NCBI GenBank assembly: GCA_017471765.1
Contig: JAFURT010000002.1
Coordinates: forward strand, 1-61,238
Direction of reading: 5' to 3'
DNA from: Clostridia bacterium
GTDB taxonomy: Bacteria; Bacillota; Clostridia; Oscillospirales; Acutalibacteraceae
DNA: 61,238 nucleotides
Of the stretch, positions 1 through 18,197 are shown piece by piece. The stretch's first letter is position 1. Each line of letters opens with the position of its first letter. The notes below the pieces were generated by a model. The model saw nothing but the letters and a program-made list of their open reading frames with translations. It was not told the DNA's origin and made no database searches. Both the position numbers and the translations under genes were made by a program.

Positions 1-438
1 AGTCACGATGCTTCTGAAGTTGGTCTGCATCATTAGAGCCTCATCCCGCCAGCAAACGTTACAATCGGAACAAGTCCAGTACTCCACATTACCGGTAGCC
101 TGGCAGGTAGCCTCCACAGCCTCTACGTGGGTGATGGTGTGAGCCGCATCGGGGTTGGTCAGCTCGCCGCAGTTCATGCAGTGGGTGTCACAAGCATAGA
201 AGTACTCGTGGTCAACGAAAGCAGTCACGTTCATGCGGTTGGTCTGCTGGGTCAGAGCCTCGTCCAGCCAGCAAACGTTACAATCGGAGCAAGTCCAGTA
301 CTCCACATTACCCATAGCCTCGCAGGTGGCCTCAACAGCCTCTACGTGGGCGATGGTGTGAGCCGCTTCGGGATTGGTCAGCTCGCCGCACAGCATGCAG
401 TGAGCATCGCAGGGATACATATACTCGTGGGGGCATTC
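1..438 (-). repeat. Two tandem 219-bp coding repeats
   Basis: The same segment recurs with a 219-bp (73-codon) period; for example, GCAAACGTTACAATCGGA occurs at 52 and again at 271. Each copy encodes a block with Cys pairs around GELTNP and YWTCSDCNVCW. The repeat continues towards the left edge, so more copies may lie outside. Confidence 0.8.
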
Positions 439-2120: not shown

Positions 2121-2150
2121 TTGACAAATTGTTCATAATTGTGTTACTAT
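2121..2150 (+). promoter_or_regulatory. Promoter of the VWA/tubulin-like operon
   Basis: TTGACA (2121-2126), an 18-bp spacer and TACTAT (2145-2150). Transcription would start near 2157, leaving a leader of about 60 nt before the ATG at 2218. Confidence 0.65.
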
Positions 2151-2217: not shown

Positions 2218-4866
2218 ATGGCGAATAGCGCAGTTCAGCACAGATGGCAACGGGTAGCGGCTTTTGCCCTTGCTGTTGTGCTGATGTTCACCGTGGCGGT
2301 GATTCCGCCTGCGGTAAAAGCGGACACAGACGAGGAAAGCACCGCTTCCCGGCTTATCCACGTGGTGTATGACGACTCCAACTCCATGATTATGGATAAA
2401 TCCACGGCCTGGTCGGAGGCGAAATACTCGTTGGAGATCCTGTCTGCCATGATGCAGGAAAAGGATATCATGAATGTGTATTTCATGAGTGACTTTAACG
2501 AGCAAAGCGGCTCCGGCAAAAACGGAGGCCCCCGGCTGAAAAACCTGTCGGGTGCCGCCAGCCAACGGCAGGCGAACATCCAAAAGATTCATAACACCGT
2601 CACCGCCACCAACGGCACCTTCTTCAGCAGTATCAAGAAGGCCTACAACGACCTGAAGGCAGACGGAAAGGGCTATGATGAACAGCACCTGGTGGTTATC
2701 ACCGATGGCGACTCGTTTTATAACTACGAGAACGCCAGCAACCTGAACTCTCTGTTCAAGGATGCACAAAAGGACGGCATCAAGGTGGTGTATCTGGCTA
2801 TCGGCCAAAACGCCATCAAGCCTACGGCCAACAATACCAGCGTGTTTGTGTATGAGGCCGCGCCCAACAGTCCCGGCAGTAAGGAGTCTATCCTACAGCG
2901 GGTCACCGAGATTGGCGAACGCATTTTCCAGCGTCCGGCCCATCCTCTCAGCGGCAATGCGCTGAACCTGAAAATTCCGGTCAGCGAGATTGTGGTGTTC
3001 GCCCAGGGGGCTAACGTGAGCGTCGGGGATATCCCCGGCACGAAAAAAAGCCTGTCCTCTGCCGGGCTGACCATGGCCGACCGGGACAAGGCGACCACCT
3101 GGCCAAACAATGATCTGATCAGAGGTATCGATAATATCGTGGTAGCCGACGGTCTGGCCGGTATGGTGGCCACCTTCACCCCCGCCTCCGGCGAGTACAT
3201 CGCCGAGGGCACGTACCAGCTGGATGTGTCTGCTACTGCTTATACCGTCTACTACAAGCCCTGTCTGGATGTGGTGCTGGAACTGACGGATGCAGACGGC
3301 ACCAGAATTGAGGACGGAGCCGAGGTGAACATCGGCAACTACACCGCTAATTATTTCCTCACCTACCCCAAGGGGCATCCCAACCATGGGCAGAAGGCTG
3401 ACCTGGCCGGCCTGGGCATCGACCCCAAGTACAGCCTGCTGGTGGACACCGGCGGCAAGATCAAGACCTATGAGGGGGGCGCCCCACAAACCGTGGAGCT
3501 GACCGAGGGCAAGACACGGGTGACCATCATTGCCCAATATCTCACCTACATATCCACCGATACCAGCATCAACCTGGCGGTGGCTGACCTGAAGATTTAT
3601 CCCCTTATCACCGAACTGACTCCCGAAAAGAAGGAGTACATCCTCTCTGAGATGGAGGATGACCGGGAGGGCTATACCCTCAAGGTGCGTATGGAGGACG
3701 GTAGCCCCGTCCCTGACACGCTGTGGGCCGCCTGCCAAGTGACTGTCAACTGTGAGGGGCTGGATTTTGAAGCCAAGAAGAACAGCGACGGCACCTTTAC
3801 CCTGCTGCCCCGCCGAAAGAACGGCAAGTACGAGGATACCGGCTCCGGGGAGCTCCCCTTCACCGCCGTGGCTACGGTCACCGAGGATGGCCGGGTGACC
3901 TACAAGGGCTCCGACGAGGGCGTGGCAGACATCTACAACGATGTGATTCCCGACAAGAACGGCTTTGCGGTGGAGATCGTCAAGATTAACCCCGGCGAAA
4001 TCAAGAGTACCAATTTTAACGGCGTCACGCCCACCGCACAGGTACAGGTCACCTGGAACGGGAACCCCCTGACCAAGGCCCAGTACGAGGCGCTGGAGCT
4101 GACTGCCGTCATGAAGAAGGAGTACCTGTGCACCGATGCCAGCGGCAACGAGGTACCGCTGTTGCGGGTCACCGGGGTGGAGTTGGATCCCTATGCAGAG
4201 GGGCAAGCCACCACCGCCACCGTCTCCTTTGAGGCGCAAGGCGACCCCGAAACCCAGCGGAAGAAGCTGGCCAGCCACGACACCTTCCAGGTAACAGCGG
4301 TCATCGACCGTGAGGGGGTGCGCAACGAGGCCACCGCCGAGGGCGAGTTGGGCGTCAAGCGGGTGCTGTCCTTGTGGGAGATTCTTGGCATCATTCTGGC
4401 CATTCTGTTGTTCCTGTTTATCCTCTTTGGCTATATCATCTGCAAAAAGTGGCTGCCCAAGAAGATTAAATACGCCAACGCCACTACCACCCGTACCTTC
4501 AAGCCGTATACCAAGCCTTCCTGCTGGCTGTCCATCCTTGTCCCCTTCCTGGGGGTGACCGTCCGTATGAAGGTGGACTATTTCGATGCAACCGGCATCA
4601 ATTCCAGCACCTCGCTGCGCATCCGGGCAACCGGCAAGAACACGTCGGCCATCCTGAATGCGGTGGAGCTGTATCGGGACGGGAACATCTATGTGGATTC
4701 CGATACACGGTTGGCCACCTACCTGGACGCTCTGCAAAACGGGCGTAACCGGCCGAGGAAGAAGCCGGTGGGCAAGCTGAACTACCGTTCTTCCCATCTG
4801 TATAAGGCCGGGGATGACTTGGTTACCTTCCTGGGCACGAAAGACCGGAAGAAGCGCAAAAAGTGA
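2218..4866 (+). CDS. Membrane-anchored von Willebrand factor A domain protein
   Basis: An 882-residue exported protein and the first gene of a four-gene operon. A signal peptide ends near Ala35. A VWA domain follows (about residues 44-240) with an intact MIDAS metal site: Asp52-x-Ser54-x-Ser56 (DDSNS), a Thr in the GTFF loop and Asp in ITDGD. The middle (about 250-715) looks like consecutive beta-sandwich domains of unknown family. A single TM helix (about 718-745, IILAILLFLFILFGYIIC) is followed by a cytoplasmic tail of about 135 basic residues. The VWA would therefore sit outside the cell with the tail facing the tubulin-like protein encoded next. VWA domains bind protein ligands through Mg/Mn. 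The ATG follows GAGGGGG with 7-nt spacing. The partner and ligand are unknown. Confidence 0.85.
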   Translation: MANSAVQHRWQRVAAFALAVVLMFTVAVIPPAVKADTDEESTASRLIHVVYDDSNSMIMDKSTAWSEAKYSLEILSAMMQEKDIMNVYFMSDFNEQSGSGKNGGPRLKNLSGAASQRQANIQKIHNTVTATNGTFFSSIKKAYNDLKADGKGYDEQHLVVITDGDSFYNYENASNLNSLFKDAQKDGIKVVYLAIGQNAIKPTANNTSVFVYEAAPNSPGSKESILQRVTEIGERIFQRPAHPLSGNALNLKIPVSEIVVFAQGANVSVGDIPGTKKSLSSAGLTMADRDKATTWPNNDLIRGIDNIVVADGLAGMVATFTPASGEYIAEGTYQLDVSATAYTVYYKPCLDVVLELTDADGTRIEDGAEVNIGNYTANYFLTYPKGHPNHGQKADLAGLGIDPKYSLLVDTGGKIKTYEGGAPQTVELTEGKTRVTIIAQYLTYISTDTSINLAVADLKIYPLITELTPEKKEYILSEMEDDREGYTLKVRMEDGSPVPDTLWAACQVTVNCEGLDFEAKKNSDGTFTLLPRRKNGKYEDTGSGELPFTAVATVTEDGRVTYKGSDEGVADIYNDVIPDKNGFAVEIVKINPGEIKSTNFNGVTPTAQVQVTWNGNPLTKAQYEALELTAVMKKEYLCTDASGNEVPLLRVTGVELDPYAEGQATTATVSFEAQGDPETQRKKLASHDTFQVTAVIDREGVRNEATAEGELGVKRVLSLWEILGIILAILLFLFILFGYIICKKWLPKKIKYANATTTRTFKPYTKPSCWLSILVPFLGVTVRMKVDYFDATGINSSTSLRIRATGKNTSAILNAVELYRDGNIYVDSDTRLATYLDALQNGRNRPRKKPVGKLNYRSSHLYKAGDDLVTFLGTKDRKKRKK

Positions 4867-4870
4867 TAAT

Positions 4871-4886
4871 TAGCGGTATGCCGCTA
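4871..4886 (+). other. Intercistronic hairpin
   Basis: TAGCGG-TATG-CCGCTA, a perfect 6-bp stem between the VWA and tubulin-like genes, with no T-tract. It may influence mRNA stability; function is not evident. Confidence 0.4.
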
Positions 4887-4937
4887 TCAAAGAGAACCGT
4901 ACAACGTGCAAATATATACTGTGAGGAGAGATTTGTT

Positions 4938-7900
4938 ATGTCCAAACAAGCAAAAGGTTCCAGCAAGACCGTTAAGGCGATGCCCCCTACGCTTCTGGTA
5001 GGTCTGGGCGGCACCGGCTGTGAGATTGTCGGTCGGGTGTACGACCTGGCCAGCAAGGAGCAGCAGAAATCCATCCAGTTTGCCTTCCTGGATACCGACG
5101 CCAACGAACTGCGCGAGAGAAAGCTGAAGGCCCCCCACGCCCATACGGTGCAGACTTCCCGCAAGATTACGGTGGGCCAGGCTCTGCGTGACGACCCCGA
5201 GGCGTACAACAACACCTTCCCCATCAACCCCCAGCTGATGAACAAGCCCCTGACCGAGGGCGCCGGCCAGATTCGTGCCGTGTCCAAGCTGGCCTTTGAT
5301 ATGTGCGTCCGTGAGGGGCGCCTGGGCGGCCTGCATGAGGCCATCAACAACCTGCAGAAGCTGAGCAGTGACGATATGGAGCAGTCCATCCGTGTGCTCA
5401 TCGTGTCCACCCTGGTGGGCGGCACCGGCTCCGGTATTCTGTTGCCGGTGGCCATGTATCTGCGGAACTATCTGGAGAACTATTGCAACAAGAAGCCCAT
5501 CATCCGTGCTTTCTGCGTGTTGCCGGAGGTGTTCTTCACCGACAAGAGCAAGACCGAGGTGGAAAAGAGCAACCTGCGCACCAATGCCTATGCCACCCTG
5601 CGTGAGCTGGATGCCTTCATGCTGCGTGCGGACAGCAAGCCCGGCTCGGACATCCGTTCCCGCTTCACCCTGAAGATGCCCCGTCCCGGCACGGTGGGCC
5701 AGTATGAGGAATACGAGCAGAATCCCCTGGATTACTGCTTCCTGTTTGACGCCCAGAACATCAACGGCGAGACCCTGGACAGCCTGCAGGCTTACAAGAT
5801 TCACGCCGCTGAGTGTATCTATGCGTCCTCCATCAGCCGTCTGCACAAGCGGCTGAACTCCTCCGAGGATAATACCATCCTGGAGCGTTGCGCCGAGAAT
5901 GGCCGCAACCGCTACTGCGGCGTGGGTGCGGCAAAGCTGTTCTACCCCGGCGAGGCGGTGCGTGACTATGTGGCGCTGAACTGGATGAGCCAGGCTATGA
6001 CCGAGGACTGGCTGCGGTATGACAACAAGGTGGAGGCGGAGAGAGCCCGCCGGCAGAACAGCCGCAAGCGCGGCGTGTCTCAGCCCCCTGTCAACGAGCG
6101 TGAGCTGTATTGCACCTATGTAGACCAGGATCTGGCCGGCGACAGCAAGAACTATTTTGGCCTGGCCATCAGCGAGGAAACCTACGAGGTGGACGAGGAA
6201 GGTATGCTCACCGAAACGCCCCGCTGGGAGACCTACCGCAAGAAGCTGGATGCCTTCATTGGCGAGAACTCCCGCAGTGACGTGAAGGATGCTGTCACCG
6301 GCAGCCTGATTGCCGCCGCCCGGCAGAAGATCGAGGAGAAGGAGCTGGATAGCTTCAAGTCCGACTTCGTCACCATCGCCCAGAAGCTGAAGGTGCTGTT
6401 CATCAAGACCCACAAGAAGGTGGAGACCAATGCCGCCGTTATCGCTGACAGCCTGTTCTCGGTGGATAACTTCAATGTGGAGGATGAGAACCGCATTGAG
6501 CACTACCTGCTGAAGAACGGCGTGCCGGTGCACCCCAACTCTGCCCGCTTCTTCCTGTATAACCTGGAGATTATGCTCAAGGAGGAGCTGACCCGTCTGA
6601 AGGCCCGCAAATCGGATTCCGACGATACGGCTTCTGCCGAGAACGGCCGTCGGCAGATGTCCTTCCCCGAGCTGGAGAAGAAGGTGCAGCAGTTCTTCAC
6701 CGCCGAGACGTATGTCCGTGACGACGACGAGAGCGGCACCAAGGTGAACATTGTCCGCTACGCCAACAGCCTGAAGCAGAAGACCTTCCGCAATACGGAC
6801 TTCATCGATTCCGCTTCCGATCTGCTGGATAAGTGCGACGGCTACATCGGCGACATCCAGAAGTACTATGGCATGTACGTCCGTGTGGCCATCATCGAGA
6901 AGGCACTGGCCTTTATCGACGACCTGTGCAACAACTACGAAATTTTCTATAAGATGCTGGGCGATGAGATCAAGGGCATTGCCCGCAACATCCAGCGCAT
7001 CGAGGAGAGCTACCAGAACGTGGTGGGCAACCCGGTCATCAACGTGTGCGCTTCTCCCACCTGCCTGCAGGCGGTGCTGGCGGCTTGCCCCAACACCATC
7101 GATTCGGTACAGCTGACCGACGACTTCAAGCAGAGCATCTTTGAGATTATTTACAAGAATTCCAGCGCCGACGCTATCTTCAAGACCAAGCAGCAGCGCC
7201 AGATTATCGAAAATCTGGTGTCCGGCGACATTCTGGACTTCTGGAGAGAGTCTGTGCTGACCCAGTATCCCCGCAAGGTGGATATGGACATCATCCAGGC
7301 TCTGCTGGCTGAGGCCGAGTACGAGGAGGGTTATACCTCCGTGGCAGATCTGGAGCACTATGTGGAGCAGAAGTACAATGCGGCCCTCACCCTGTCTGCG
7401 CCCTTCATCGACCGTCCGGTGGGTCAGCCCTACCAGATCATCGCTTGCGGCATGAGCAGCGATATCGAGGATGTGGACGATGCTGTTAAGTGCCGCATCA
7501 TGAAGCTGTTCGGCCACTACGAGAAGGATTCGCTGATGGATAAGAACCAGATTCTGGTCATGACAGCCCTGTACAACCTGAAGGCCAGCGATCTGAAGAA
7601 GTTTGCCTCTGCCGATCCGCACCCGGCCGACCCCCGTGCCGCCGGCTCCTACTTCAAGGACTACGTGGCCCGTATCGACAACATCCTGCCGGATTCCGAG
7701 AAGTCCAACATCATCACCCCTCACCTCGACAGAAGATGGCACTTTGCCGGCGTGTTGCCGGACTTCGAGGACAAGACCGAGGTAGCCCGCCAGACCGAGG
7801 CCCAGAAGGCGTTCCTGGTGGCGCTGGCCTATGGCTATGTCCGCTTCAACCGGGATCAGTACAAGTTCGTGGACGGCAACGGCGACTTCATCAGCGAGCA

Positions 7901-8501
7901 GATCATCGTGCAGGATGGCCTGTGCGACAAACTGCATGAGGTGTACGATGCCCTGAGCATCAGCCGCCCGCTGGTGCGTGACTTCCTCAACCGTTACCAG
8001 ACCTCCACCGACATCGAAAAGGATGTGGACAGCCTGGGCAACCTGGATTATACCCATTCCAAGCTGTACAAAGCGCTTAAGAACATGCACCTGCTCAAGT
8101 ATCCCTTCATCCCCACCGTTAGCTATCTGGAGATTCCTCTGTTGTATAAGACCTCGGTGGGTAACGGTTCCTTTGATGACGACGATGCGGTCACTATGCT
8201 GCATAACTTTATCAACATGACCGACGAGTACCTGTCCATCTTCTACGATGACAATATTCGTCGTACCGACTATCTGGTCCGGTGGCTGGATGAGCAGACG
8301 GCATTGATGCTGGACAATGTGGCCCAGTATTACAACCTGGAGGGCAAGGTGATCATCCAGGAGCCCTTCGCCGATCTGCTGTTGGCCCGTCTGGTCAACA
8401 ACATTCTGGGCAAGTTCCGGAACCTGTCTTCTGCCAATGAGGAAGCGGCCAAGTGCTGTGAGAAGTACACGGCCAAGTGGAGCGAGCTTACCAAGGCTTG
8501 A
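4938..8501 (+). CDS. Large tubulin/FtsZ-like GTPase family protein
   Basis: A cytoplasmic protein of 1187 residues. The start is the ATG at 4938 after GAGGAGAG with 8-nt spacing; an upstream GTG at 4863 lacks a good site. The N-terminal domain shows LLVGLGGTGCEIVGRVY (about residues 19-35) as the first nucleotide-binding loop, FLDTDANEL (about 54-62), and STLVGGTGSGILLPVAM (about 157-173), which is the tubulin/FtsZ signature G-box (GGTGSG). This matches the tubulin-like group collected as Pfam Tubulin_2, which is much larger than FtsZ. The remaining 800 or so residues are mostly helical and charged, with no recognised domain; they may mediate assembly or contact its membrane partners. Upstream is a VWA membrane protein and downstream are two membrane proteins, so it is probably recruited to the membrane. 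GTP hydrolysis and polymerisation are inferred from the motifs only. Confidence 0.85.
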   Translation: MSKQAKGSSKTVKAMPPTLLVGLGGTGCEIVGRVYDLASKEQQKSIQFAFLDTDANELRERKLKAPHAHTVQTSRKITVGQALRDDPEAYNNTFPINPQLMNKPLTEGAGQIRAVSKLAFDMCVREGRLGGLHEAINNLQKLSSDDMEQSIRVLIVSTLVGGTGSGILLPVAMYLRNYLENYCNKKPIIRAFCVLPEVFFTDKSKTEVEKSNLRTNAYATLRELDAFMLRADSKPGSDIRSRFTLKMPRPGTVGQYEEYEQNPLDYCFLFDAQNINGETLDSLQAYKIHAAECIYASSISRLHKRLNSSEDNTILERCAENGRNRYCGVGAAKLFYPGEAVRDYVALNWMSQAMTEDWLRYDNKVEAERARRQNSRKRGVSQPPVNERELYCTYVDQDLAGDSKNYFGLAISEETYEVDEEGMLTETPRWETYRKKLDAFIGENSRSDVKDAVTGSLIAAARQKIEEKELDSFKSDFVTIAQKLKVLFIKTHKKVETNAAVIADSLFSVDNFNVEDENRIEHYLLKNGVPVHPNSARFFLYNLEIMLKEELTRLKARKSDSDDTASAENGRRQMSFPELEKKVQQFFTAETYVRDDDESGTKVNIVRYANSLKQKTFRNTDFIDSASDLLDKCDGYIGDIQKYYGMYVRVAIIEKALAFIDDLCNNYEIFYKMLGDEIKGIARNIQRIEESYQNVVGNPVINVCASPTCLQAVLAACPNTIDSVQLTDDFKQSIFEIIYKNSSADAIFKTKQQRQIIENLVSGDILDFWRESVLTQYPRKVDMDIIQALLAEAEYEEGYTSVADLEHYVEQKYNAALTLSAPFIDRPVGQPYQIIACGMSSDIEDVDDAVKCRIMKLFGHYEKDSLMDKNQILVMTALYNLKASDLKKFASADPHPADPRAAGSYFKDYVARIDNILPDSEKSNIITPHLDRRWHFAGVLPDFEDKTEVARQTEAQKAFLVALAYGYVRFNRDQYKFVDGNGDFISEQIIVQDGLCDKLHEVYDALSISRPLVRDFLNRYQTSTDIEKDVDSLGNLDYTHSKLYKALKNMHLLKYPFIPTVSYLEIPLLYKTSVGNGSFDDDDAVTMLHNFINMTDEYLSIFYDDNIRRTDYLVRWLDEQTALMLDNVAQYYNLEGKVIIQEPFADLLLARLVNNILGKFRNLSSANEEAAKCCEKYTAKWSELTKA

Positions 8502-8509
8502 TCGTGTAT

Positions 8510-8554
8510 TGCCGCCCGGGCCGGTAACGGAAATTCCGTCCGGCGTGGGCGGCA
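8510..8554 (+). other. Long intercistronic hairpin
   Basis: The outer arms TGCCGCCCGGGCCGG and CCGGCGTGGGCGGCA pair almost fully, and the inner ACGGAA/TTCCGT continues the stem. There is no T-tract, so it is unlikely to be a terminator. It sits between the tubulin-like gene and the next gene and may act in mRNA processing or expression ratio. Confidence 0.55.
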
Positions 8555-8597
8555 GATCAGGCATTGACGCAAATTTGGCAAAAGGAGGTTCACGCTG

Positions 8598-10547
8598 TTG
8601 CTGTCCGTTTTGATCATAGACACCAAAGTGTTCGATCATTACAGTAAGTACGATTACTTTTTCGGACACTTTGAAACCAACGACGACGTGGCCGTCTGTG
8701 TGTGGAACAAGCAGAGCATCGAGGACGATGTTTCCTCCATGCTCCCCCAGCTGATGGACACCGTCAGAAACGTTCCTGAGTGGAACGCCTATATCATCTG
8801 TGAACCGCATGACCCCATGGCCTACCTGGAGGGCGACTTTGCGAACAAGACCCAGTATTCCGTCAACCCGTATGAGCGTGCCAACCGGCCGGATTACGAT
8901 CCGCAGGCTGACCGGCTGTTGAAGCTGGTGTACTATCTGGGTGGCCGTGGCGATGACCGGGTGGATTATATCCAGCAGTATCAGTTCCGTGCCGCCCGCC
9001 CCAGCAACATCTATCTCATCACCCCCCGCTTGATGAAGAACATTGAACAGCAGAAGCTGTTTCTGCTCAGTGCCTTGCAGCAGGGACACCAGGATGTGAT
9101 GGATGACCCGGCCAGAATTCTGGCCGGGGAGACGGATATCACCCGGAACTATGCGGAATTCTGGGAGCGGTATGAATATCCGGCCAGTTGCCGCTTCTTG
9201 GTGTATGACTTCCCGGAGGAGAAGCACCAGACCTATCAGGATAGCTGGTTCCCCTTCTGGACGGCGGTTATTTCCATGACCCAGAACCGGTTTACCAACG
9301 CCGTGCTGGCTCCGTATAAACTGCACCTGCTGGATGTGGCCATCAACGATGATAAGTTCGCCGAGTATATCAACCAGTTCTATACCATGCTGCTGGAAAA
9401 CAAGGACATCAACCAACGGGCCATCGAGCTGGAGGAGCACCTGGAGAAGGAAGAAGCCGCCAGCACCGATATCACCGTGGGTGATTCCATGACACCGGTG
9501 TATGTGAACTTTCCCCATTTCAGCGAGGGCGACCTGTTTGCCGACGATGAGAACATCGGCATTTTCAAGGATCGGCCGGTGCTGGACGAGGAGGACTGGA
9601 GCGAACAGATGACCCGCACCCATGAGGCCATCGGCAAGTTTTTCAAGGCCATTGGCCGGGGAAAGGGCGAGGCGGTGGATTTTGTCCACGACAGCTACGC
9701 CGAGGAGCTACCGGACCTGCAGGGAAAGCGCATCACCAAGTACGATGCCGAGGAGCTGACCGAGGCGCTCAACCAGGATGAACTGCGTATGGTGGATCTG
9801 GATCTGGGGTACACCGCCAGCCGGGCCAAGTTCGAGAAGGCCCAGCATAAGGCAGAAAAGATCGTGGAGACCTATATGCGCCGCCGTCTGCGTATGAAGA
9901 TCGCCATCGGGCTGTTAGCGGCCTGCATGGGCATCTATTTCATCGGGTTTATTCCGTATTTGATCAACTCCCTGGCCCATTCCGGCTTCAGCTTCCTTAT
10001 CGCCCTGCTTATTTCAGCCGTGGCGATGGTGGTGCCGGCGGCCTGTGGGCTGGCCATGCTGTTCGTGCTTAAGCGCAATATGAAAAAGCTCATCGGCCTG
10101 TATAATGATACGGTGGCCGCCTGTTTCGTCGAGGCGCAGAAGGGCTCCGAGCTGCAGGCCGAATACCTGACACTGCTGTTCGACTATATGAAGAAGTATC
10201 AGCTGTTGTCTACGGCCAAGGATAACAACACCCACTCTCTGCGCATCCAGCAGTTGCTCATCTCCAACGCTGTGTTTGATGACGCCATTGCGGCGTGTAC
10301 GGCGCTGGCGGCGTTGCGGAATGTGCCCCTGCGGCGCATCACCGACCGGTATGTGGAGAACACCATCGACACCACCCCGGAAGCACAGATCTATCTGTAC
10401 GAGGAGAATGTGGACGGCAAGATGGCGCTCAATTCCACCCCCGATGTGCTGGAGGCTCCGTTCCCCTTCACCGAGAGCTTTGCCCTGGTGCCTGAGGAAC
10501 TGTACGAGTGTGCCGGCTATACCCAAGGGAAGGAGGCCACAGCATGA
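8598..10547 (+). CDS. Two-TM protein of unknown family in the tubulin-like operon
   Basis: A protein of 649 residues with a TTG start preceded by AAAGGAGGT at 8-nt spacing, which decides the start. Residues 1-430 are soluble and rich in acidic and aromatic residues; I recognise no domain. Two hydrophobic helices follow (about 435-459 and 468-493), then a cytoplasmic C-terminal region of about 150 residues. A charged segment before the TM pair (KFEKAQHKAEKIVETYMRRR) could be a coiled coil. The stop overlaps the ATG of the next gene (ATGA), so the two are translationally coupled. Position and topology suggest a cytoplasmic adaptor that ties the tubulin-like protein to the membrane; this is inference. 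Confidence 0.75.
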   Translation: MLSVLIIDTKVFDHYSKYDYFFGHFETNDDVAVCVWNKQSIEDDVSSMLPQLMDTVRNVPEWNAYIICEPHDPMAYLEGDFANKTQYSVNPYERANRPDYDPQADRLLKLVYYLGGRGDDRVDYIQQYQFRAARPSNIYLITPRLMKNIEQQKLFLLSALQQGHQDVMDDPARILAGETDITRNYAEFWERYEYPASCRFLVYDFPEEKHQTYQDSWFPFWTAVISMTQNRFTNAVLAPYKLHLLDVAINDDKFAEYINQFYTMLLENKDINQRAIELEEHLEKEEAASTDITVGDSMTPVYVNFPHFSEGDLFADDENIGIFKDRPVLDEEDWSEQMTRTHEAIGKFFKAIGRGKGEAVDFVHDSYAEELPDLQGKRITKYDAEELTEALNQDELRMVDLDLGYTASRAKFEKAQHKAEKIVETYMRRRLRMKIAIGLLAACMGIYFIGFIPYLINSLAHSGFSFLIALLISAVAMVVPAACGLAMLFVLKRNMKKLIGLYNDTVAACFVEAQKGSELQAEYLTLLFDYMKKYQLLSTAKDNNTHSLRIQQLLISNAVFDDAIAACTALAALRNVPLRRITDRYVENTIDTTPEAQIYLYEENVDGKMALNSTPDVLEAPFPFTESFALVPEELYECAGYTQGKEATA

Positions 10548-13500
10548 AGGCAATATGGGCTTTTGTGAAATTTCTGATTCCTGTGCTGCCCATCGTGCTG
10601 GCGGCACTGCTCCCCATGGCAATCAACCTGAAGAAGCCGAAGCGGCATTTGCAACTGTTCCTTCCCGTGCTGGCCCTGGTGTACGGCATCGTATTTCTGC
10701 TGCTGGTGGACGACATCAGCCAGGTACTGCTGAACGGCATCTATTACGTGCTTGACCTGCTGGCCGACTTCATTGAGAAGTACGAGTTCCTCCACTTCAT
10801 CAACGACATTAACTGGGCTTACGGCATCCTGTATGTGGTCAACCTGGCGATGTTGCTCTTGTTTGTGGCGATAAAGTCGGTGCTGTTGCCGATTTTGTCG
10901 GCAGAGAAGCCGGAGAAAAAGCGTGTGCTGAAGTTCCTTACCGGCCTGTTCTACACCTACGATGAGGAGGACGGAAAGTGGTACATCCGCAACCGGCTGG
11001 CCCACGCCAAAAAGGTGATGCTGGCCATCCATATCGGTGTGCTGGCCTTTTCCTCCCTGTTGTTCGGCACCACCTGCTATTTCATCTCCAAAGACCTGCT
11101 GTCGGTACCCTTCTATCCGGTATTCGGCATCCTGGTGTTCGGCGAGTGCTATTTCTTCCTCTGCGGCCTGCCTAAGGGCGGCGAGGAGGTAGAGGCACCC
11201 GGCGCCGGCCCGGAGGAACAGCCGGAGGAAGTGGACTACAGCCTCTTTAAGGAGATATACGAAAAGCTGTTCGGCGACCGGCTGTCCGGCAGTGCGGAGC
11301 TGCCCCCCATCAGCGATAAGCGGTCGTCGGTGGAACAGCTTCTGCAGCGGTATTATACCGAGGCGGAGGAGACCGGCTCTCAGGAGGCCCGGCTGTTTTA
11401 CGAGTATTTCCGTAAACTGGCCGCCCGGGAGGACGCCGACCTGGATGACGGCCTGATTGCCGCCGCCCGGAATATCCTGGATGGGAAGAATGTGCTGTTC
11501 AACACCCCCTTCTACGGCGATACCACGGAATACATCTTCCTGCCGGTGACCCGCCATCTGATGCGTGGTAATAAACTGCTGGTCATCGTTGGCCGCACCG
11601 GGGCAGACGACTCTGTCATCCGCTGGTTGCGGGAGGGTCTGTTGGGTGTCAACAATTTTGAAAACCTATGGAAGATCGATTATCTGCAGGAGGCAGACGA
11701 AAAGACCAAGATTGCCATCCTGCCCATGAAGGACCTGTACAACCAGAAGCTGCTGACGACCCACGCCAATTTCCTGGAGGAGACCAGCCTGGTGATGGTG
11801 ATGGATCCCACCCGTCTGCTGGGCACCATGCAGGTGGGCCTGAGCAATGTGGTGGGCTACCTGCGCCGTGGCACAGCGCCGCAGTATATCGCCTACGACC
11901 GCAACTGCGACGGTCTGGTGGATAGCTTATCCCACGTGCTGGGCAGCAGTATCGAGGAAGTGGCGGCCACCGTGGTGGGTAGTGCCAAGACCACGGCGAT
12001 GATCTGGGAGGCGGATGGGCAGAATCTGCACAACCGTCTCGGTTTGGATACCGCCCGGTATCTGGGTATGGGCACCGAGCTTGGCGCCGTGGCGGTGGCC
12101 GGCAAGGTATCCACGGTCAACTGGTTTGCCTACGATAAGTTCCCGGCTACAGATATCCGCTGGGTGGTGTCCCAGTATTACGGCCCGCTGTGCAAGGTGA
12201 TGGATATTCCCACCTCTCAGGCGGAGCTGGAAAAGCGGCTGGCCATCAGCGCCGATATCTGGTCGTTGCCCAAGGCAAAGGACCGCTTTATCATCGCCGA
12301 GGACGAGTATAATAACCCCTACGAAATCATCCGGCAGTTCTCCTCCCGGGCGTCGGCCCAGGCGTTTGTGCATGTGCTCAGCCAGAACTACCTGTTGCGG
12401 GATTACATGTGCGAGAATGCGGAGATTTTCACCTACGACCCCAAGGCCATCCCCAGCTTTGTGCCGGATTACCAGCGGGTACGGAATAACACCGTCTACC
12501 GCATCACCATGCGGCTGATCAACGGTGAAATTTACGAGGAAGAGATCCGGGCCGCCCTGGAGCTGGTGGGCATTGAGAGCACCGATGTGTACGCCGATAT
12601 GGTGGCGCTCATCACCCAGTGCTTCATCCCCACCGACAGCGAGGGGGATAATGCCGACGGCATTATCCATGTGCGGCATGAGCTGGTGGTGGATCCCAAG
12701 ACCCATCGCCCCGAGCGTAAACGGGTGTATTCCATCATCAACAACGCCTTTATCGACAAGTTCCTGTCCCAGCTGCAGGTGGTGCACTATGTGGCGGAGG
12801 ATGAGCAGGATAAGAACCTGTACATGAACTCCATCCTCTACGGCCATATCTATCAGAAATACCTGCCCGGCACCTTTGCGGTGTTTGACGGCAAGTACTA
12901 TGAGGTGGTGTCCATCACCCGCCATTCCGGCATGGTGGTGCGCCGTGCGGCGGACCATGTGACCCGTCGCCGCTATCACCGCCAGTTGCGCACCTATCAG
13001 GTGTCCGGCTTCCGGTATGTGGATGAGGTGGCCTCCTCGGTCACCTTCGGCAACGTGTGTCTGGAGCACGGCGAGGCCGCTGTGACGGTGTCCACCGCCG
13101 GCTATCTGGAGCAGGCCGACTTCGGGGATATGAAGCACGCCACCCGGGTCACCCTCAACGGCGTACCCGACAGACGGTATCCCCACAAGAACATCCTTCG
13201 CTTTAAGCTGGAGGGGGCAGACGCTAAGGTGCGCTTCACCGTGGCCACCATGATGAATGAGCTGTTTGTCACCCTGTTCCCGGAGATGCACGAATACATC
13301 GTGGCTACCACCGCCGCTGACCTGACTCCCGAGACCGAGGGCTATATCCCCGGCCTGGTGGTGGATGAGGCGGACGAGTACATCTATGTCATCGAGGATA
13401 GCCTTATCGACATGGGTCTGCTCATCAATGTGGAGCGTTATTTCAAGCGCATCCTGGAGATTGTCACCGACCAGCTCAGCTGGCATGCCGAGCAGTTGCT

Positions 13501-14992
13501 GGCGGCAGAAGAGGGCGGCCTGGTGGACGAAGGCGATGGCCCGGATACCGGTGAAGAAGGCGCCGGCGACGGCGAGGACGAAGCCGGCGGCAAGAAGAAA
13601 GGCTCCTGGTGGCAACGCTTCAAGGCGTGGCTGCGGCGCCTGTTTGGCCGCAAGAAGAAAAAGGGCGAAGCTCCCGGTGACGAGGGCGGCGACATTGAAA
13701 CCCCCGGTGAAGATGGCGGCGGTATTGTCGAGGAGCCGGAAGGCCCCGGCGGCATCGCTGAGGAACCGGGAACAGAGGGAGGAGCCGATGCGCCCTCTGA
13801 CGAGCCTGCGGAAGAGCCCGAAAAGCCGAAGAAACCCGGCTTCTGGGGTCGCATCCGGGAACGCTTCGGCCGTAAGAAGAAAAAGGCTGATGAGTCGGCG
13901 GAGTCCCCGGCCGAGGAGCCTGGCGAGGAGCCGATTCCCGGTGCCGACGAGGGTGAACCGGTACCTGCCGGCGGCATCGCCGATGAAAGCGGTGCCGATA
14001 CCGTAGGGGCAACCAACGCCAACTACACCTCCTTCACCTTCACCAACAAGCAGTTCAGCGTGATCGACGATAACGGTGAGGGCATTACCGGTGAGGACGA
14101 GGAATCGGTGGACGTAAACACCGACGACCCGGGCCTTGGCACAGGTGCCAAGCCGGGCGAGCGACTGCCGTATCCCCAGCGTTTCTATATGCTGTACGGC
14201 TATGACGCTGTGCCGGCGGCGTTTGACCTGGAGGGCACGCTGGCTTATCTGCGTGAGTGCGGCTTTGCCGACAACTATCTGTGGCAGGCCCGTGACAATG
14301 CCAAGAACAGCAAGCTACGCTGGTACAACCACCGGTTTGAGCCGGGCGAGCATTACTGCGATTTCTGCGGCACCAAGCTGGAGGGCACCATTTCGGTGCT
14401 GAAGGATGGCCGTGAGCGCTGTGCCGAGTGCAAGCGTACCGCCATCACCAAGGTGCGGGATTTCCGCAAGCTGTATAAGCACGCCCACACCCGGATGGAG
14501 GATATCTTTGGCATTAAGATTCACTCCAAGATCAGCATCCGCATCACCAACGCCAAGGAGATCGCCGAGCAGGGTGGCTATGAGTTTACCCCCACGCCCC
14601 GGTTTGACGGGCGTGCTCTGGGCTTCGCCCAACGGTTGGGCAACGGCCATACCCGCATCGTGCTGGAGAATGGCGCCCCCCGCCTGGAGACGGAAAAGAC
14701 ACTGGTGCACGAGCTGACCCACGTCTGGCAGTACGAGAATATGGGCTGCCTGTGGGAGCCCAGCCGTGACCTGGTAGCCATCGAGGGCATGGCGGTGTGG
14801 ACGGAGGCGCAGTACTTGGTGTGCAACGGCGAAGAGGAACGTGCCATGGCGTATGTGACCGGCCGGACGATGGAGGATTCCGAGTATGGCCAGGGTATGC
14901 GGGAATATATCCGCAAATACCCGTTACATAAGGGCAAGACCGCCCGCCGGGGCACCCCCTTCAACCGTCCCGGACAGAATCCCCTTAACTAA
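10544..14992 (+). CDS. Multi-TM protein with helicase-like middle and C-terminal DA1-like zinc peptidase domain
   Basis: A protein of 1482 residues starting at an ATG that overlaps the previous stop. About five TM helices lie in residues 1-220. The middle (about 230-980) has blocks such as LLVIVGR, MVMDPTRLL and NYLLRDYM, faintly like a degenerate SF2 helicase/ATPase without a clear Walker A; this is a weak call. Residues about 985-1200 are a Gly/Pro/Glu linker with two cationic Trp-containing helices. The last 260 residues hold CDFCG (Cys1272/1275) and CAEC (Cys1293/1296), then VHELTHVWQ (HExxH at 1389-1393) and IEGMAVW (Glu1414). That order, zinc ribbon or half-LIM, 'DGRxxC', HExxHxW, then EG, matches the DA1 peptidase domain known from plants. 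It is likely the effector of the operon, with the catalytic domain predicted to be cytoplasmic. Confidence 0.8.
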   Translation: MKAIWAFVKFLIPVLPIVLAALLPMAINLKKPKRHLQLFLPVLALVYGIVFLLLVDDISQVLLNGIYYVLDLLADFIEKYEFLHFINDINWAYGILYVVNLAMLLLFVAIKSVLLPILSAEKPEKKRVLKFLTGLFYTYDEEDGKWYIRNRLAHAKKVMLAIHIGVLAFSSLLFGTTCYFISKDLLSVPFYPVFGILVFGECYFFLCGLPKGGEEVEAPGAGPEEQPEEVDYSLFKEIYEKLFGDRLSGSAELPPISDKRSSVEQLLQRYYTEAEETGSQEARLFYEYFRKLAAREDADLDDGLIAAARNILDGKNVLFNTPFYGDTTEYIFLPVTRHLMRGNKLLVIVGRTGADDSVIRWLREGLLGVNNFENLWKIDYLQEADEKTKIAILPMKDLYNQKLLTTHANFLEETSLVMVMDPTRLLGTMQVGLSNVVGYLRRGTAPQYIAYDRNCDGLVDSLSHVLGSSIEEVAATVVGSAKTTAMIWEADGQNLHNRLGLDTARYLGMGTELGAVAVAGKVSTVNWFAYDKFPATDIRWVVSQYYGPLCKVMDIPTSQAELEKRLAISADIWSLPKAKDRFIIAEDEYNNPYEIIRQFSSRASAQAFVHVLSQNYLLRDYMCENAEIFTYDPKAIPSFVPDYQRVRNNTVYRITMRLINGEIYEEEIRAALELVGIESTDVYADMVALITQCFIPTDSEGDNADGIIHVRHELVVDPKTHRPERKRVYSIINNAFIDKFLSQLQVVHYVAEDEQDKNLYMNSILYGHIYQKYLPGTFAVFDGKYYEVVSITRHSGMVVRRAADHVTRRRYHRQLRTYQVSGFRYVDEVASSVTFGNVCLEHGEAAVTVSTAGYLEQADFGDMKHATRVTLNGVPDRRYPHKNILRFKLEGADAKVRFTVATMMNELFVTLFPEMHEYIVATTAADLTPETEGYIPGLVVDEADEYIYVIEDSLIDMGLLINVERYFKRILEIVTDQLSWHAEQLLAAEEGGLVDEGDGPDTGEEGAGDGEDEAGGKKKGSWWQRFKAWLRRLFGRKKKKGEAPGDEGGDIETPGEDGGGIVEEPEGPGGIAEEPGTEGGADAPSDEPAEEPEKPKKPGFWGRIRERFGRKKKKADESAESPAEEPGEEPIPGADEGEPVPAGGIADESGADTVGATNANYTSFTFTNKQFSVIDDNGEGITGEDEESVDVNTDDPGLGTGAKPGERLPYPQRFYMLYGYDAVPAAFDLEGTLAYLRECGFADNYLWQARDNAKNSKLRWYNHRFEPGEHYCDFCGTKLEGTISVLKDGRERCAECKRTAITKVRDFRKLYKHAHTRMEDIFGIKIHSKISIRITNAKEIAEQGGYEFTPTPRFDGRALGFAQRLGNGHTRIVLENGAPRLETEKTLVHELTHVWQYENMGCLWEPSRDLVAIEGMAVWTEAQYLVCNGEEERAMAYVTGRTMEDSEYGQGMREYIRKYPLHKGKTARRGTPFNRPGQNPLN

Positions 14993-15004
14993 TCCAATAA
15001 GCAA

Positions 15005-15041
15005 AAAACGCCTCATGGAGTCACACTCCATGAGGCGTTTT
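15005..15041. terminator. Bidirectional terminator
   Basis: A 17-bp perfect stem (AAAACGCCTCATGGAGT, loop CAC, then its complement), A-rich on one side and T-rich on the other. It lies between the convergent operon end (14992) and the glycosyltransferase gene (15053) and can serve both. Confidence 0.85.
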
Positions 15042-15052
15042 GCTATGACAGA

Positions 15053-16660
15053 TTACCGCTGTTTTCGCCACTTCTTCGGCAGTTGTATCGGCAGGCGGAT
15101 AGCCTGGCCAAGGCAACCCAGACCATAGGCGGCGAAGAACACCAGCAGAATGAAATAGGTGAGGATGTACTGGCTTTTGCCTTCAAACAGCAGGTGATAC
15201 AGCCCACCCCCCAGCAGGACGGTCAGCAGGGTGGCGGTGGCCGGGTCGATGCGGCGGCGCAGGAGCCCCACCACACCGGCGCAGAACAGCACCAGCACCG
15301 CCCCTTGGTAGAGGTTAAACCAGTCGTGAAGCCCCCGGTTTAGGGCGCCGTTGTAGATGTTGTCCACCAGCGAGCCCTCCGGGATTTCCACATAATGCCC
15401 CTTTACCTGGCTGACCCACAGGCACTCGTAGGAGGGCTCGTTCCACTGGGACAGCAGTTTTTTGCGGAAGAAATCCACCGTGTACTCCGGGTCATCGGCC
15501 AGTTCCTCCAGCCGGAGAAGCAGGTCTTCCTTTGCCAGGGTGTTGGCGGCATCCGCATCCCCCTCGCAGTCCACGAACAGGGATTTGCCCAGGTCGTTGT
15601 ACCAGCCGGGGGCCATGTTGGATTCCGACAGGCCGTCACGGAGATAAATAAGCTGGCTGACACCGTCCCCCAGGTCGACGCCGCTGCGTTGCTCGTAGCT
15701 GAAGATGATGGCCTGCTGGGTCAGCAGGGGGAGGAGCAGTAACACCGGCAATAGCGGCAAGGCGTGCCAGCATCGGCGGCGCAGGGCATCCAGTAGCAGA
15801 CACAGCACAAGGGCCAGCGCCCAGATCATGTTGTTGTATTTGGCCACCACCGCCAGCACCAGTAGCCCGGCGGCGGGGAGTAGCCATAGCAGACGGCGGC
15901 GGTGCTCGCTTTGCATATACCGTACCACCATATACCCGGCCCATAGACCGGCGGCAAAGCCGGGCAGGTTGCCATAGGTGAAGGCGCAGAAGAATATCGG
16001 CTGAAAGCATCCCACCAGCAGGACAGCCAGCAGAGTGGTGCCCCAGCGTGCGTCAAATAGCCGCCGGGCCAGTTGCATCAGCCCGGCATAGAGGGCGGCC
16101 AGTGCCAGCACGTTGACCACCTGCATGGGGAGGGCGGTCTCCGTGCCGCATAACCGGTAGACCAGCTCGGACAGGAAGACATACCCTAACTGGAAGGGAT
16201 AAAACCGGTAATAGCTGATATTGCCGTAGAAATCGTTGTTGCTGGTGTGAAAGTCGGTAAAATCTCCGGCGATAACCCGACAGGCGGTGTCAAACACCGT
16301 GCCGGAGTCTGCTCCCGGTGCGCTCTGGGTGAGGAATATCCAGCTAAACCCACAGCCAAGCGCAAAGGCCACCACCACCCCGGTGAGAATGTGGTCATAC
16401 AGCGCCCGGCGAGGGGGTGTGAACCGGTACAGCACGACCGCCAGCAGAATATAGGCGGTGACCAGCAACAGGGTGGGTAGCGGGCCGTCCGTCAGGTACA
16501 GGATGACCTCACCGCCGAAGTTCTCCGGGTCGATGACGCTGGTCTGGGTAAGGGCGTACAGGGCCACATAGCCGAACAACAGCAGGCAGAGTAGCCCTAC
16601 GGCGGCTCCGCCGAAGCCGGCCAGCCGTTCCGGCAGTCGGCTGTTCCTCTTTTCTATCAT
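15053..16660 (-). CDS. GT-C-like polytopic membrane glycosyltransferase
   Basis: A protein of 535 residues with 10-12 hydrophobic helices. The start is the ATG at 16660 (MIEKRN), with AAGGGGG about 9 nt upstream. A large extracytoplasmic loop after the first helices carries FHTSNNDFYGNISYYRFYPFQLGY, and a loop of about 130 residues precedes the last helices. The layout, with an acidic residue early in the first loop and many TM helices, fits dolichyl/undecaprenyl-phosphate-sugar dependent GT-C enzymes such as the PMT/ArnT group. I see no decisive catalytic signature, so substrate and acceptor are unknown. It has its own promoter and shares a terminator with the convergent operon. It probably modifies cell-wall glycans or a surface protein. 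Confidence 0.65.
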   Translation of the reverse strand: MIEKRNSRLPERLAGFGGAAVGLLCLLLFGYVALYALTQTSVIDPENFGGEVILYLTDGPLPTLLLVTAYILLAVVLYRFTPPRRALYDHILTGVVVAFALGCGFSWIFLTQSAPGADSGTVFDTACRVIAGDFTDFHTSNNDFYGNISYYRFYPFQLGYVFLSELVYRLCGTETALPMQVVNVLALAALYAGLMQLARRLFDARWGTTLLAVLLVGCFQPIFFCAFTYGNLPGFAAGLWAGYMVVRYMQSEHRRRLLWLLPAAGLLVLAVVAKYNNMIWALALVLCLLLDALRRRCWHALPLLPVLLLLPLLTQQAIIFSYEQRSGVDLGDGVSQLIYLRDGLSESNMAPGWYNDLGKSLFVDCEGDADAANTLAKEDLLLRLEELADDPEYTVDFFRKKLLSQWNEPSYECLWVSQVKGHYVEIPEGSLVDNIYNGALNRGLHDWFNLYQGAVLVLFCAGVVGLLRRRIDPATATLLTVLLGGGLYHLLFEGKSQYILTYFILLVFFAAYGLGCLGQAIRLPIQLPKKWRKQR

Positions 16661-16696
16661 CCTGCTACGCCCCCTTATCTGTGTTCGTACCAAAAA

Positions 16697-16725
16697 ATTA
16701 TACCATACCCTATCCCCGTCGTCAA
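16697..16725 (-). promoter_or_regulatory. Promoter of the GT-C gene
   Basis: On the minus strand: TTGACG, a 17-bp spacer and TATAAT, 5/6 plus 6/6 matches to consensus. The -10 box lies about 37 bp from the ATG. Confidence 0.8.
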
Positions 16726-16743
16726 CCTTGCCTTTTTCGGGGA

Positions 16744-16772
16744 TTGCAAAACGGAGGGGGTTGTGTTACAAT
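16744..16772 (+). promoter_or_regulatory. Promoter of trkA-trkH
   Basis: TTGCAA (16744-16749), a 17-bp spacer and TACAAT (16767-16772), about 45 bp before the trkA ATG. It is back-to-back with the GT-C promoter. Confidence 0.75.
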
Positions 16773-16816
16773 ACAAAGATAGAAGAGTCCCGTAGAGCAT
16801 GTTGGGAGGAAAAGCT

Positions 16817-18175: not shown

Positions 18176-18197
18176 TTTTTGAGAGAGTAGGCGACTT

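What the first reader, a model, noticed from the sequence alone, without database searches (positions are those of the whole stretch)
2218..14992. Four-gene operon: VWA membrane protein, giant tubulin-like GTPase, two membrane proteins, one with a DA1-like peptidase
Seen in sequence: a single promoter, small gaps, an ATGA overlap and one terminator bind four genes. They encode an exported MIDAS-competent VWA protein, a 1187-residue protein with GLGGTG and GGTGSG, a two-TM adaptor-like protein, and a multi-TM protein ending in a zinc peptidase domain. Known: large tubulin-like families outside FtsZ have been described in bacteria and archaea and were proposed to act in membrane remodelling, with VWA-linked neighbourhoods, as far as I recall. 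Inference: this is a signalling or remodelling machine in which the VWA senses outside, the tubulin-like filament organises the membrane, and the peptidase cuts a target on assembly. The peptidase fusion and the exact four-gene set may be undescribed.
Basis: partly seen in the sequence, partly recalled or inferred. Interest (0 to 1): 0.88.

Follow-up and report, generated by a model that had tools for sequence, protein, structure and literature searches.

The report
Tubulin-like membrane operon with conflict partners
Four neighbouring genes in a gut-type bacterium appear to encode a membrane machine built around a distant relative of tubulin, and in related bacteria the same gene set often sits beside immune-type signalling enzymes, ion channels or toxin-export genes, which suggests a role in defence or combat rather than ordinary cell shape.

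Summary
Four co-directional genes (2218-14992) encode an exported VWA protein (V), an FtsZl1/Tubulin_2 protein (T), a two-TM protein (M) and a multi-TM protein ending in a zinc-ribbon + HExxH...E peptidase (C-Z). The set is a conserved module: of 45 loci with enough flanking sequence, V is in 45, M in 41, C in 44, Z in 44, all four in 41. M and the C core gave no Pfam or PDB match above noise.
FtsZl1-VWA operons were described in 2010, so the kind is known. New here: the defined core and its partners. In one clade an EccC-like ATPase, WXG100-like proteins and polymorphic-toxin genes follow it. Elsewhere TIR proteins and two RCK-type channels, one with a RyR domain, lie beside it. The window's own genome encodes such a TIR/RyR-channel/RCK-channel trio as one gene run on another contig. 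High-scoring RyR channels occurred in 2 of 5 core-bearing and 0 of 386 core-less genomes of one sample (threshold set after seeing scores).
Best reading: a surface-sensing conflict platform; its mechanism is inferred. "DA1-like" fails the family cut-off.

The parts
2121..2150 (+). promoter-like site TTGACA-18-TACTAT upstream of the operon
   Evidence: 10 of 12 matches, but such matches are as frequent as in shuffles
2218..4866 (+). V: exported VWA protein, 882 aa; N-terminal signal-type segment, VWA outside (inferred), one C-terminal TM, basic cytosolic tail
2371..2385 (+). MIDAS DxSxS (D52, S54, S56) of V; T134 near 2617 and D163 near 2704 complete it
   Evidence: invariant in 8 of 8. In the 40 rows DxSxS is invariant partly because rows were chosen by such a motif; T134 and D163 were not selected for and are invariant there too
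4938..8501 (+). T: FtsZl1 / Tubulin_2 protein, 1187 aa
   Evidence: PF13809 E 1.6e-51
5001..5018 (+). GLGGTG nucleotide loop of T
   Evidence: sequence; GxGGxG in 86 of 87 T rows
5418..5435 (+). GGTGSG tubulin signature loop of T
   Evidence: sequence; G[GA][TS]G[ST]G in 84 of 87 T rows
8598..10547 (+). M: two-TM protein, 649 aa, cytosolic N- and C-parts by charge (inferred), no known family found
10544..14992 (+). [not shown]
11264..13562 (+). conserved core of C (735 profile positions), no Pfam or PDB match above noise
14126..14986 (+). Z domain: zinc ribbon plus gluzincin-type peptidase
   Evidence: 67 Z hits (65 distinct proteins), 61 with HExxH
14357..14431 (+). zinc ribbon C-x2-C ... DGRxRC-x2-C
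   Evidence: 65 of 67 Z hits carry a CxxC...CxxC pair
14708..14722 (+). HELTH metal-binding motif; third ligand E of EGMA at 14783
15005..15041 (.). hairpin between convergent genes, terminator-like on the - strand, possibly bidirectional

Best explanation
The operon encodes the core of a membrane-spanning conflict (defence or contact-antagonism) platform. Shown: gene content, motifs, conservation of the four-gene set, and genomic association with TIR proteins, RCK/RyR channels and, in one clade, an EccC-like ATPase with WXG100-like and polymorphic-toxin genes. Inferred: V senses a ligand or contact outside through its MIDAS site and signals through its cytosolic tail. On the inner face, M and the C core hold the FtsZl1 protein T at the membrane. 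GTP-dependent assembly or disassembly of T sets a threshold. The tethered zinc peptidase Z cuts a partner (perhaps V, M or an output protein) to make the switch irreversible. Outputs are swappable. In this genome the likely output is the TIR / RyR-RCK channel / Castor-like RCK channel trio on contig C41: the TIR would make an ADP-ribose signal that the RyR domain binds, opening a channel and collapsing the membrane potential. In the Lachnospiraceae-rich clade the same core would instead, or also, serve toxin export by the ATPase.
For: Core conservation: 41 of 45 loci with room carry V, M, C and Z with T, 40 of 45 with V-T-M-C strictly adjacent; the loci were found by T alone, so the other genes are independent evidence. 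Coupling: M-C gap median -8 bp in 69 pairs. Peptidase motifs: HExxH in 61 of 67, ribbon in 65 of 67, both plus EGMA-type glutamate in 58 of 67. Outputs: among 80 loci (79 plus window, limited view) RyR-RCK 12, Castor-like RCK 13, TIR 7, any of them 23; TIR and RyR frames overlap in L087, L100, L109, L116 and L117. Own genome: RyR-RCK, Castor-like RCK and TIR-LRR genes in one run on C41 (L144), 44-48% (RyR, best three) and up to 65% (Castor-like) identical to core-linked copies. RyR test: class sample, at least 390 bits, 2 of 5 core genomes against 0 of 386 others; at E<=1e-30, 2 of 5 against 12 of 386. Of 50 core genomes searched, 12 of the 42 without a seed sequence reach 390 bits (Fisher). 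The channel profile matches solved RyR domains, E 4.4e-11. A 2026 preprint (PMC13232231, outline with abstract, passages) shows RyR-domain phage proteins bind or cleave TIR-made 2'/3'cADPR.
Against: In 57 of 80 loci none of the three output families is in view, and in 28 of the 50 core genomes searched no RyR channel was found at E<=1e-30. In the window the trio is in trans; no such frame was found in the 61 kb. At E<=1e-30, RyR-RCK proteins also occur in 12 of 386 core-less genomes. The 390-bit threshold was chosen after seeing the scores, profile seeds came from core-linked copies, and the genomes are related, so the Fisher values overstate the case. Of the 5 'core' genomes in the sample, G287 holds a divergent core (in L125 no V or Z label) and G292 only a fragment. 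No PADLOC model matched the four proteins better than E 0.037. No substrate, ligand, GTPase activity or filament is shown. Background rates of the Castor-like and TIR genes were not measured.
Confidence: 0.4

Rival explanations
1. Membrane-remodelling machine, as proposed for FtsZl1-VWA operons in 2010: T forms filaments at the membrane and shapes or vesiculates it; V, M and C anchor and regulate them.
For: T is FtsZl1; the 2010 paper proposes this from VWA and membrane-protein neighbours (PMC2875224). V, M and C have membrane segments.
Against: No remodelling-type partner was recognised among the neighbours that I scanned, which were a selection; those that recur are TIR, channels, a secretion-type ATPase, transglutaminase-like and lipoprotein genes, and toxins. 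The 2010 text itself leaves open whether FtsZl1 forms filaments.
Confidence: 0.2
2. The core is the membrane apparatus of a type-VII-like secretion system: M and C form the channel, T or the ATPase powers it, Z matures or gates cargo, V contacts the target cell.
For: In one 22-row clade of the T tree 15 rows (two of them the same genome, several with only a remnant) have an EccC/EssC-like ATPase gene next (NCBIfam EccC_a E 2.4e-21, though 76 bits against a cut-off of 509; PDB hits to an FtsK/SpoIIIE protein, YukB and EccC). In 8 of 8 extended loci with the ATPase two families of about 95-aa helical proteins follow, and in 5 of 8 toxin domains over Pfam cut-offs. In G256, a core genome without the dedicated ATPase, a gene set like a canonical T7SS lies about 4-15 kb upstream of V, with a WXG100 match over cut-off.
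Against: The own genome has no such ATPase (only one ATPase-domain match, E 1.8e-7) and no WXG100 over cut-off, though it is 78.6% complete. G256, listed as 100% complete, has no match to the dedicated ATPase at E<=1e-30. A relative of the ATPase sits with a kinase and other genes instead of the core in L122. The small proteins match a WXG100 profile only weakly (hhalign probability 39 and 26).
Confidence: 0.22
3. A member of the GAP1-N2 / DO-GTPase conflict systems described by Kaur et al. 2020, which include Firmicutes tubulin and vWA genes.
For: Same broad ingredients: tubulin with long C-terminal part, extracellular vWA with TM (PMC7159879 section 29).
Against: No GAP1 or DO-GTPase match in V, T, M or C-Z at E<=1. 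A locus that does fit, L025 (two tubulins, DO-GTPase2 E 1.3e-9), shows no M, C or Z and its tubulins sit on a separate branch.
Confidence: 0.04
4. Housekeeping envelope or potassium-homeostasis operon, linked to the trkA-trkH genes just downstream.
For: trkA and trkH lie at 16799-19640; RCK-type genes recur near the core elsewhere.
Against: A convergent PMT_2-type gene separates them; the core is rare (5 of 391 genomes of the class), unlike housekeeping genes.
Confidence: 0.06

Closest known systems
FtsZl1 (Tubulin_2, PF13809) operons with vWA proteins, Makarova & Koonin 2010
   Same: FtsZl1 protein with long C-terminal part, next to a vWA membrane protein with intact MIDAS; other lineage-specific membrane genes
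   Different: Here a fixed four-gene set with M, the C core and the Z peptidase; the parts of the text that I read (1-3 of 5) name no such peptidase, TIR, RyR or T7-type partner. Its additional files could not be opened, and a review in it mentions an FtsZl1 locus in Bacteroides capillosus (recalled to be today's Pseudoflavonifractor), so parts of the neighbourhood may be tabulated there
GAP1-N2 DO-GTPase conflict systems with tubulin, Kaur et al. 2020
   Same: Tubulin-domain and extracellular vWA proteins, membrane setting, conflict interpretation
   Different: No GAP1 or DO-GTPase found, one tubulin instead of two, own M and C-Z families
Type VII secretion systems, including T7SSc-j of Garrett et al. 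2024
   Same: In one clade only: EccC-like ATPase domain, about 95-aa helical proteins, polymorphic toxins
   Different: ATPase of about 1150 aa without TM and, by sequence profiles, one FtsK-type match; no WXG motif in the small proteins aligned; the word tubulin does not occur in that paper's text
Thoeris-type TIR signalling
   Same: TIR protein beside a putative ligand-gated effector
   Different: Effector candidates are RCK-type channels, one with a RyR domain; the tubulin/VWA core is extra. No signal molecule tested; the trio was not scanned against a defence library
DA1 / DUF6782-type zinc peptidases
   Same: Zinc ribbon followed by HExxH...E peptidase
   Different: The window domain is below every Pfam cut-off listed

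Membership tests
FtsZl1 / Tubulin_2 | PF13809 over curated cut-off | tested here: met
   176 bits against 27
FtsZl1 / Tubulin_2 | GTP-binding glycine loops | tested here: met
   GLGGTG and GGTGSG; 86 and 84 of 87 rows
FtsZl1 / Tubulin_2 | operon with a vWA protein | tested here: met
   V in 45 of 45 loci with room
FtsZl1 / Tubulin_2 | tubulin fold, GTP hydrolysis, polymerisation | not testable with these tools
VWA domain | MIDAS residues and VWA fold | tested here: met
   MIDAS invariant in 8 of 8; profile match to BatB VWA structure E 0.0011; P0001 alone has no Pfam VWA hit
GAP1-N2 DO-GTPase system | GAP1 protein and DO-GTPase in the operon | tested here: not met
   no such Pfam match in the four proteins at E<=1
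GAP1-N2 DO-GTPase system | two tubulin genes in Firmicutes versions | tested here: not met
   one Tubulin_2 match in the own genome, 78.6% complete
Type VII secretion system | EccC/EssC-type ATPase like that of the clade in the genome | tested here: not met
   own genome: one match to the ATPase domain alone, E 1.8e-7, in an 830-aa frame; genome 78.6% complete
Type VII secretion system | WXG100 protein over cut-off | tested here: not met
   own genome best E 0.027, below cut-off; in the ATPase clade EspC 22.8 of 23.5 and WXG100 21.3 of 27.3 bits for L111:5170-5469
Type VII secretion system | ATPase membrane-bound (as in T7SSa-j) | tested here: not met
   no hydrophobic segment in 8 of 8 clade ATPases examined
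Type VII secretion system | EsaB/YukD-type partner | not tested
   no profile search was made at the ATPase loci
DA1 (PF12315) | PF12315 over cut-off | tested here: not met
   window domain none at E<=1; 9 of 48 homologues weak, best 0.028; 0 of 150 family genomes over cut-off
Gluzincin-type zinc peptidase | HExxH plus downstream E ligand | tested here: met
   HELTH ... EGMA; HExxH in 61 of 67; catalysis not tested
RyR domain (own-genome channel on C41) | PF02026 over cut-off | tested here: inconclusive
   27.3 against 27.4 bits, E 4.3e-6; L023's copy has no Pfam hit at E<=0.05; family profile matches solved RyR domains E 4.4e-11
TIR domain (own-genome gene on C41) | PF13676 over cut-off | tested here: met
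   72.9 against 28 bits; catalytic residues not checked
Castor/Pollux or RCK channel (own-genome gene on C41) | channel or RCK family over cut-off | tested here: not met
   only Slo-like_RCK E 0.036, 14.1 of 24 bits; the name rests on weak matches (L087 copy: Castor_Poll_mid E 0.003, below cut-off) and architecture
Known anti-phage systems (PADLOC-DB 2.0.0) | model match for the four proteins | tested here: not met
   only one match, E 0.037, to C-Z; the C41 trio was not scanned

The most novel reading that the evidence does not exclude
A previously unrecognised bacterial immune or antagonism machine in which a tubulin-superfamily GTPase, tethered by two orphan membrane proteins and wired to an extracellular integrin-like VWA sensor and an intracellular zinc peptidase, triggers swappable outputs: a TIR enzyme that makes an ADP-ribose signal for a RyR-domain RCK channel (a bacterial counterpart of ryanodine-receptor gating), and in one clade a type-VII-like toxin export module with a soluble ATPase.
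Probability: 0.33. Interest if true: 0.92.

Novelty: new variant of a known kind. Interest (0 to 1): 0.73.

Why it matters
FtsZl1 proteins were described in 2010 without a tested function, and I found no later test in the papers searched. A defined core with named partners makes the question testable: does a tubulin-family GTPase control a TIR/ion-channel response or toxin export? The RyR-domain channel beside TIR genes would also give a bacterial setting for the old question of how cyclic ADP-ribose acts on RyR domains.

Tried and rejected
DA1 membership: rejected at the family cut-off. GAP1-N2 membership: rejected. P-loop or helicase origin of the C core (my impression from the sequence): no Pfam or PDB support. 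Fold of M: only noise-level PDB hits; M relatives were not scanned against Pfam, only the window protein was. WXG100 identity of the small proteins: left inconclusive (PDB hits are mostly generic coiled coils). Trk genes downstream as part of the system: not supported. An AAA protein next to the trio in the own genome has relatives near the core in L024, L054, L057, L087 and L145 of the loci searched; not pursued; the ClpP search in the same script failed by a typing error. A single-sequence search for T in genome contigs found nothing; the profile search did. Rows dropped: 29 of 79 core genomes were left out of the RyR search because of the 50-locus limit, chosen by me for good view, not at random. 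42 of the fetched loci were left out of the 45-locus count for lack of room or because T was absent or cut (the rest's list). Several loci are near-copies: L019 with L075 and L020 with L053 have identical T.
Full report

Is the set real? A profile of seven T proteins found 189 relatives in genome contigs, of which 79 loci were kept. Profiles for the other proteins were then run on the neighbouring frames. Of 45 loci with room on both sides (43 of the 79, L023 and the window), V was found in 45, M in 41, C in 44, Z in 44, and all four in 41; V-T-M-C are strict neighbours in 40. In three of these 44 (L048, L084, L088) the Z match is partial and lacks HExxH. Of the four loci without M, three (L080, L081, L092) have C and Z, and frames on the other strand were called in the place of M; L085 lacks M, C and Z. 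M and C usually overlap (median gap -8 bp in 69 pairs). The peptidase is a separate gene after C in nine named loci (L056, L060, L063, L066, L067, L070, L080, L081, L082) and in L027, so fusion is not obligatory. HExxH is kept in 61 of 67 Z hits (65 distinct proteins). In the own family, 14 of 200 genomes have Tubulin_2 hits at E<=0.001, 12 over cut-off. Of 13 family and genus loci fetched, 8 show the V-T-M-C order; in L028 M carries no profile label and in L027 the peptidase is split off; L022, L025, L029, L030 and L031 do not show it, though some of these contigs are short. The C core is rare: 5 of 391 genomes of the class, one of them divergent and one a fragment.

Partners in one clade: a T7-like module. 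In a 22-row clade of the T tree 15 rows carry an ATPase gene, a cut copy or a remnant of it right after C-Z (L093 outside the clade has a remnant). It is about 1150 aa, has one recognised FtsK-type domain, Walker motifs and no membrane segment, and its nearest solved relatives are FtsK/SpoIIIE-type, YukB and EccC ATPases. In 15 genomes searched, long copies (over 800 residues aligned) were found in 10, all among the 11 chosen for having the gene or a remnant; the 4 chosen without it gave only short ATPase-domain matches. Nine regions downstream were fetched. In all 8 with the ATPase, two families of about 95-aa helical proteins follow (most are seeds of the two profiles); the ninth has only a 195-aa remnant and neither family. 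One of the two families is fused to a papain-fold toxin domain in L111 and to a WHH nuclease domain in L113. Toxin domains over Pfam cut-offs occur in 5 of 8 (L111-L115); of L116 and L117 only some genes were scanned, of L118 none. The small proteins resemble WXG100/EspC only below cut-off. An ATPase relative in L122 sits instead with a kinase, two WXG100-like genes (below cut-off) and a Gln_amidase protein, and with genes that look by eye like a phosphatase and a VWA protein.

Partners in several clades: TIR and channels. Three other families recur: a 4-TM protein with an RCK-type region and a C-terminal RyR domain, a 2-TM RCK-type protein with weak Castor/Pollux similarity, and TIR proteins, some with LRR or HD domains. 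Within the stretches in view they occur in 12, 13 and 7 of 80 loci, 23 loci in all. These counts use profiles seeded from the same loci and a view of at most about 10 kb, so they show recurrence, not enrichment. That the two are ion channels is inferred from architecture; neither reaches a channel family cut-off. The window's relatives L034 and L035 carry TIR and RyR-channel genes directly upstream of V. Transglutaminase-like and lipoprotein genes recur in 6 loci each.

The own genome. Searching for the RyR channel showed that the window's genome encodes one on contig C41. The stretch L144 holds, in one run, the RyR-RCK channel (10791-12653), the Castor-like protein (12676-14787) and a TIR-LRR protein (14768-16735). 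None served as a profile seed. They are 44-48% (RyR, best three), 51-65% (Castor-like, 11 full-length copies listed; L080 and L081 did not appear) and 32-39% (TIR, three full-length) identical to copies near the core. So the accessory set seen beside the core elsewhere is present here in trans.

Test of the RyR association. In 391 genomes of the class, 14 have a RyR-RCK match at E<=1e-30. At 390 bits or more there are two, G000 and G541, and both are among the 5 core genomes; 0 of 386 core-less genomes reach that score (the two searches drew the same number and, where listed, the same handles). In G541 the channel gene lies on the contig of the core. Of 50 core genomes searched (of 79 available, chosen by me), 22 match; leaving out 8 that bear seed sequences, 14 of 42 match and 12 of 42 reach 390 bits. 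Fisher's test gives 1.1e-2 (2 of 5 against 12 of 386 at E<=1e-30), 1.3e-4 (2 of 5 against 0 of 386 at 390 bits), 3.6e-9 (14 of 42 against 12 of 386) and 1.6e-13 (12 of 42 against 0 of 386). I set the 390-bit line after seeing the scores, related genomes are not independent, and the profile favours core-linked sequences, so I take this as strong but not conclusive. In 28 of 50 core genomes no such channel was found.

Mechanism. What is shown is composition and association. The step from TIR to RyR channel rests on named knowledge: TIR proteins of Thoeris make 2'/3'cADPR, and RyR-domain phage proteins bind or cleave these (preprint PMC13232231, outline with abstract and passages). That the core triggers the trio, that T assembles, and that Z cuts a partner are inferences. 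The alternative that the core is itself a secretion apparatus is nearly as good for the ATPase clade, but the own genome lacks the ATPase and WXG100 proteins as far as it is complete, and G256, listed as 100% complete, has the core without a match to the dedicated ATPase at E<=1e-30. G256 has a gene set like a canonical T7SS about 4-15 kb upstream of V; one case proves nothing.

Novelty. Makarova & Koonin 2010 (PMC2875224; parts 1-3 of 5 read) described FtsZl1-VWA operons; its additional files could not be read. Kaur et al. 2020 (PMC7159879; section 29 and passages) described tubulin/vWA GAP1-N2 systems, which differ. Garrett et al. 2024 (PMC11217815; outline, section 7, part 2 of section 6, passages) lists T7SSc-j and does not contain the word tubulin. 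PMC9871819 was seen in passages only. In the search listings I found no paper on the four-gene core with TIR, RyR or T7-like partners; the searches were made, each showing only its best-ranked papers, in an open-access library that lacks most subscription papers. I therefore call it a new variant of a known kind.

Noticed in passing
L144 (own genome, contig C41) 10791-16735: RyR-RCK channel, Castor-like RCK protein and TIR-LRR protein in one run, the same families that flank the core elsewhere
   Followed up: yes
L144 7459-10150; L145 11292-14078: Genes that look by eye like clpP next to an AAA protein (AAA + AAA_lid_6 by Pfam in L144) lie beside the trio in the own genome, and a similar pair lies just upstream of V in G541; AAA relatives also in L024, L054, L057, L087
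   Followed up: partly
window 16799-19640: trkA and trkH potassium-uptake genes downstream of the operon, beyond a convergent PMT_2-type gene
   Followed up: no
window 1-1803 (- strand): Divergent gene for a protein with a signal-type N-terminus and cysteine-containing repeats towards its C-terminus, cut by the contig end
   Followed up: no
L122 4212-13768: T7-like locus with an unusual soluble FtsK-type ATPase, kinase, VWA- and phosphatase-like genes (by eye), two WXG100-like genes and a Gln_amidase effector, related by profile to the ATPase of the core clade
   Followed up: partly
L143 (G256) 5830-17477: Gene set like a canonical T7SS (EssC-like 1547 aa, YukD-like by eye, WXG100-type effectors, kinase-like by eye) upstream of V on the same strand
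   Followed up: partly
L037 19850-20437, L065 19721-20347, L093 19622-20200: Only about the first 190-210 residues of the ATPase are present after C-Z in three loci; possibly a stand-alone adaptor or decay
   Followed up: no
L033 2126-9937: Three tandem VWA paralogues in front of T in a close relative of the window
   Followed up: no
L024 2-4960: C-Z protein whose peptidase lacks HExxH and is followed by a transglutaminase-like region (by eye)
   Followed up: no
L025 1807-13250: Two tubulin genes with a DO-GTPase2 gene, fitting the GAP1-N2 system, without M, C or Z labels
   Followed up: yes
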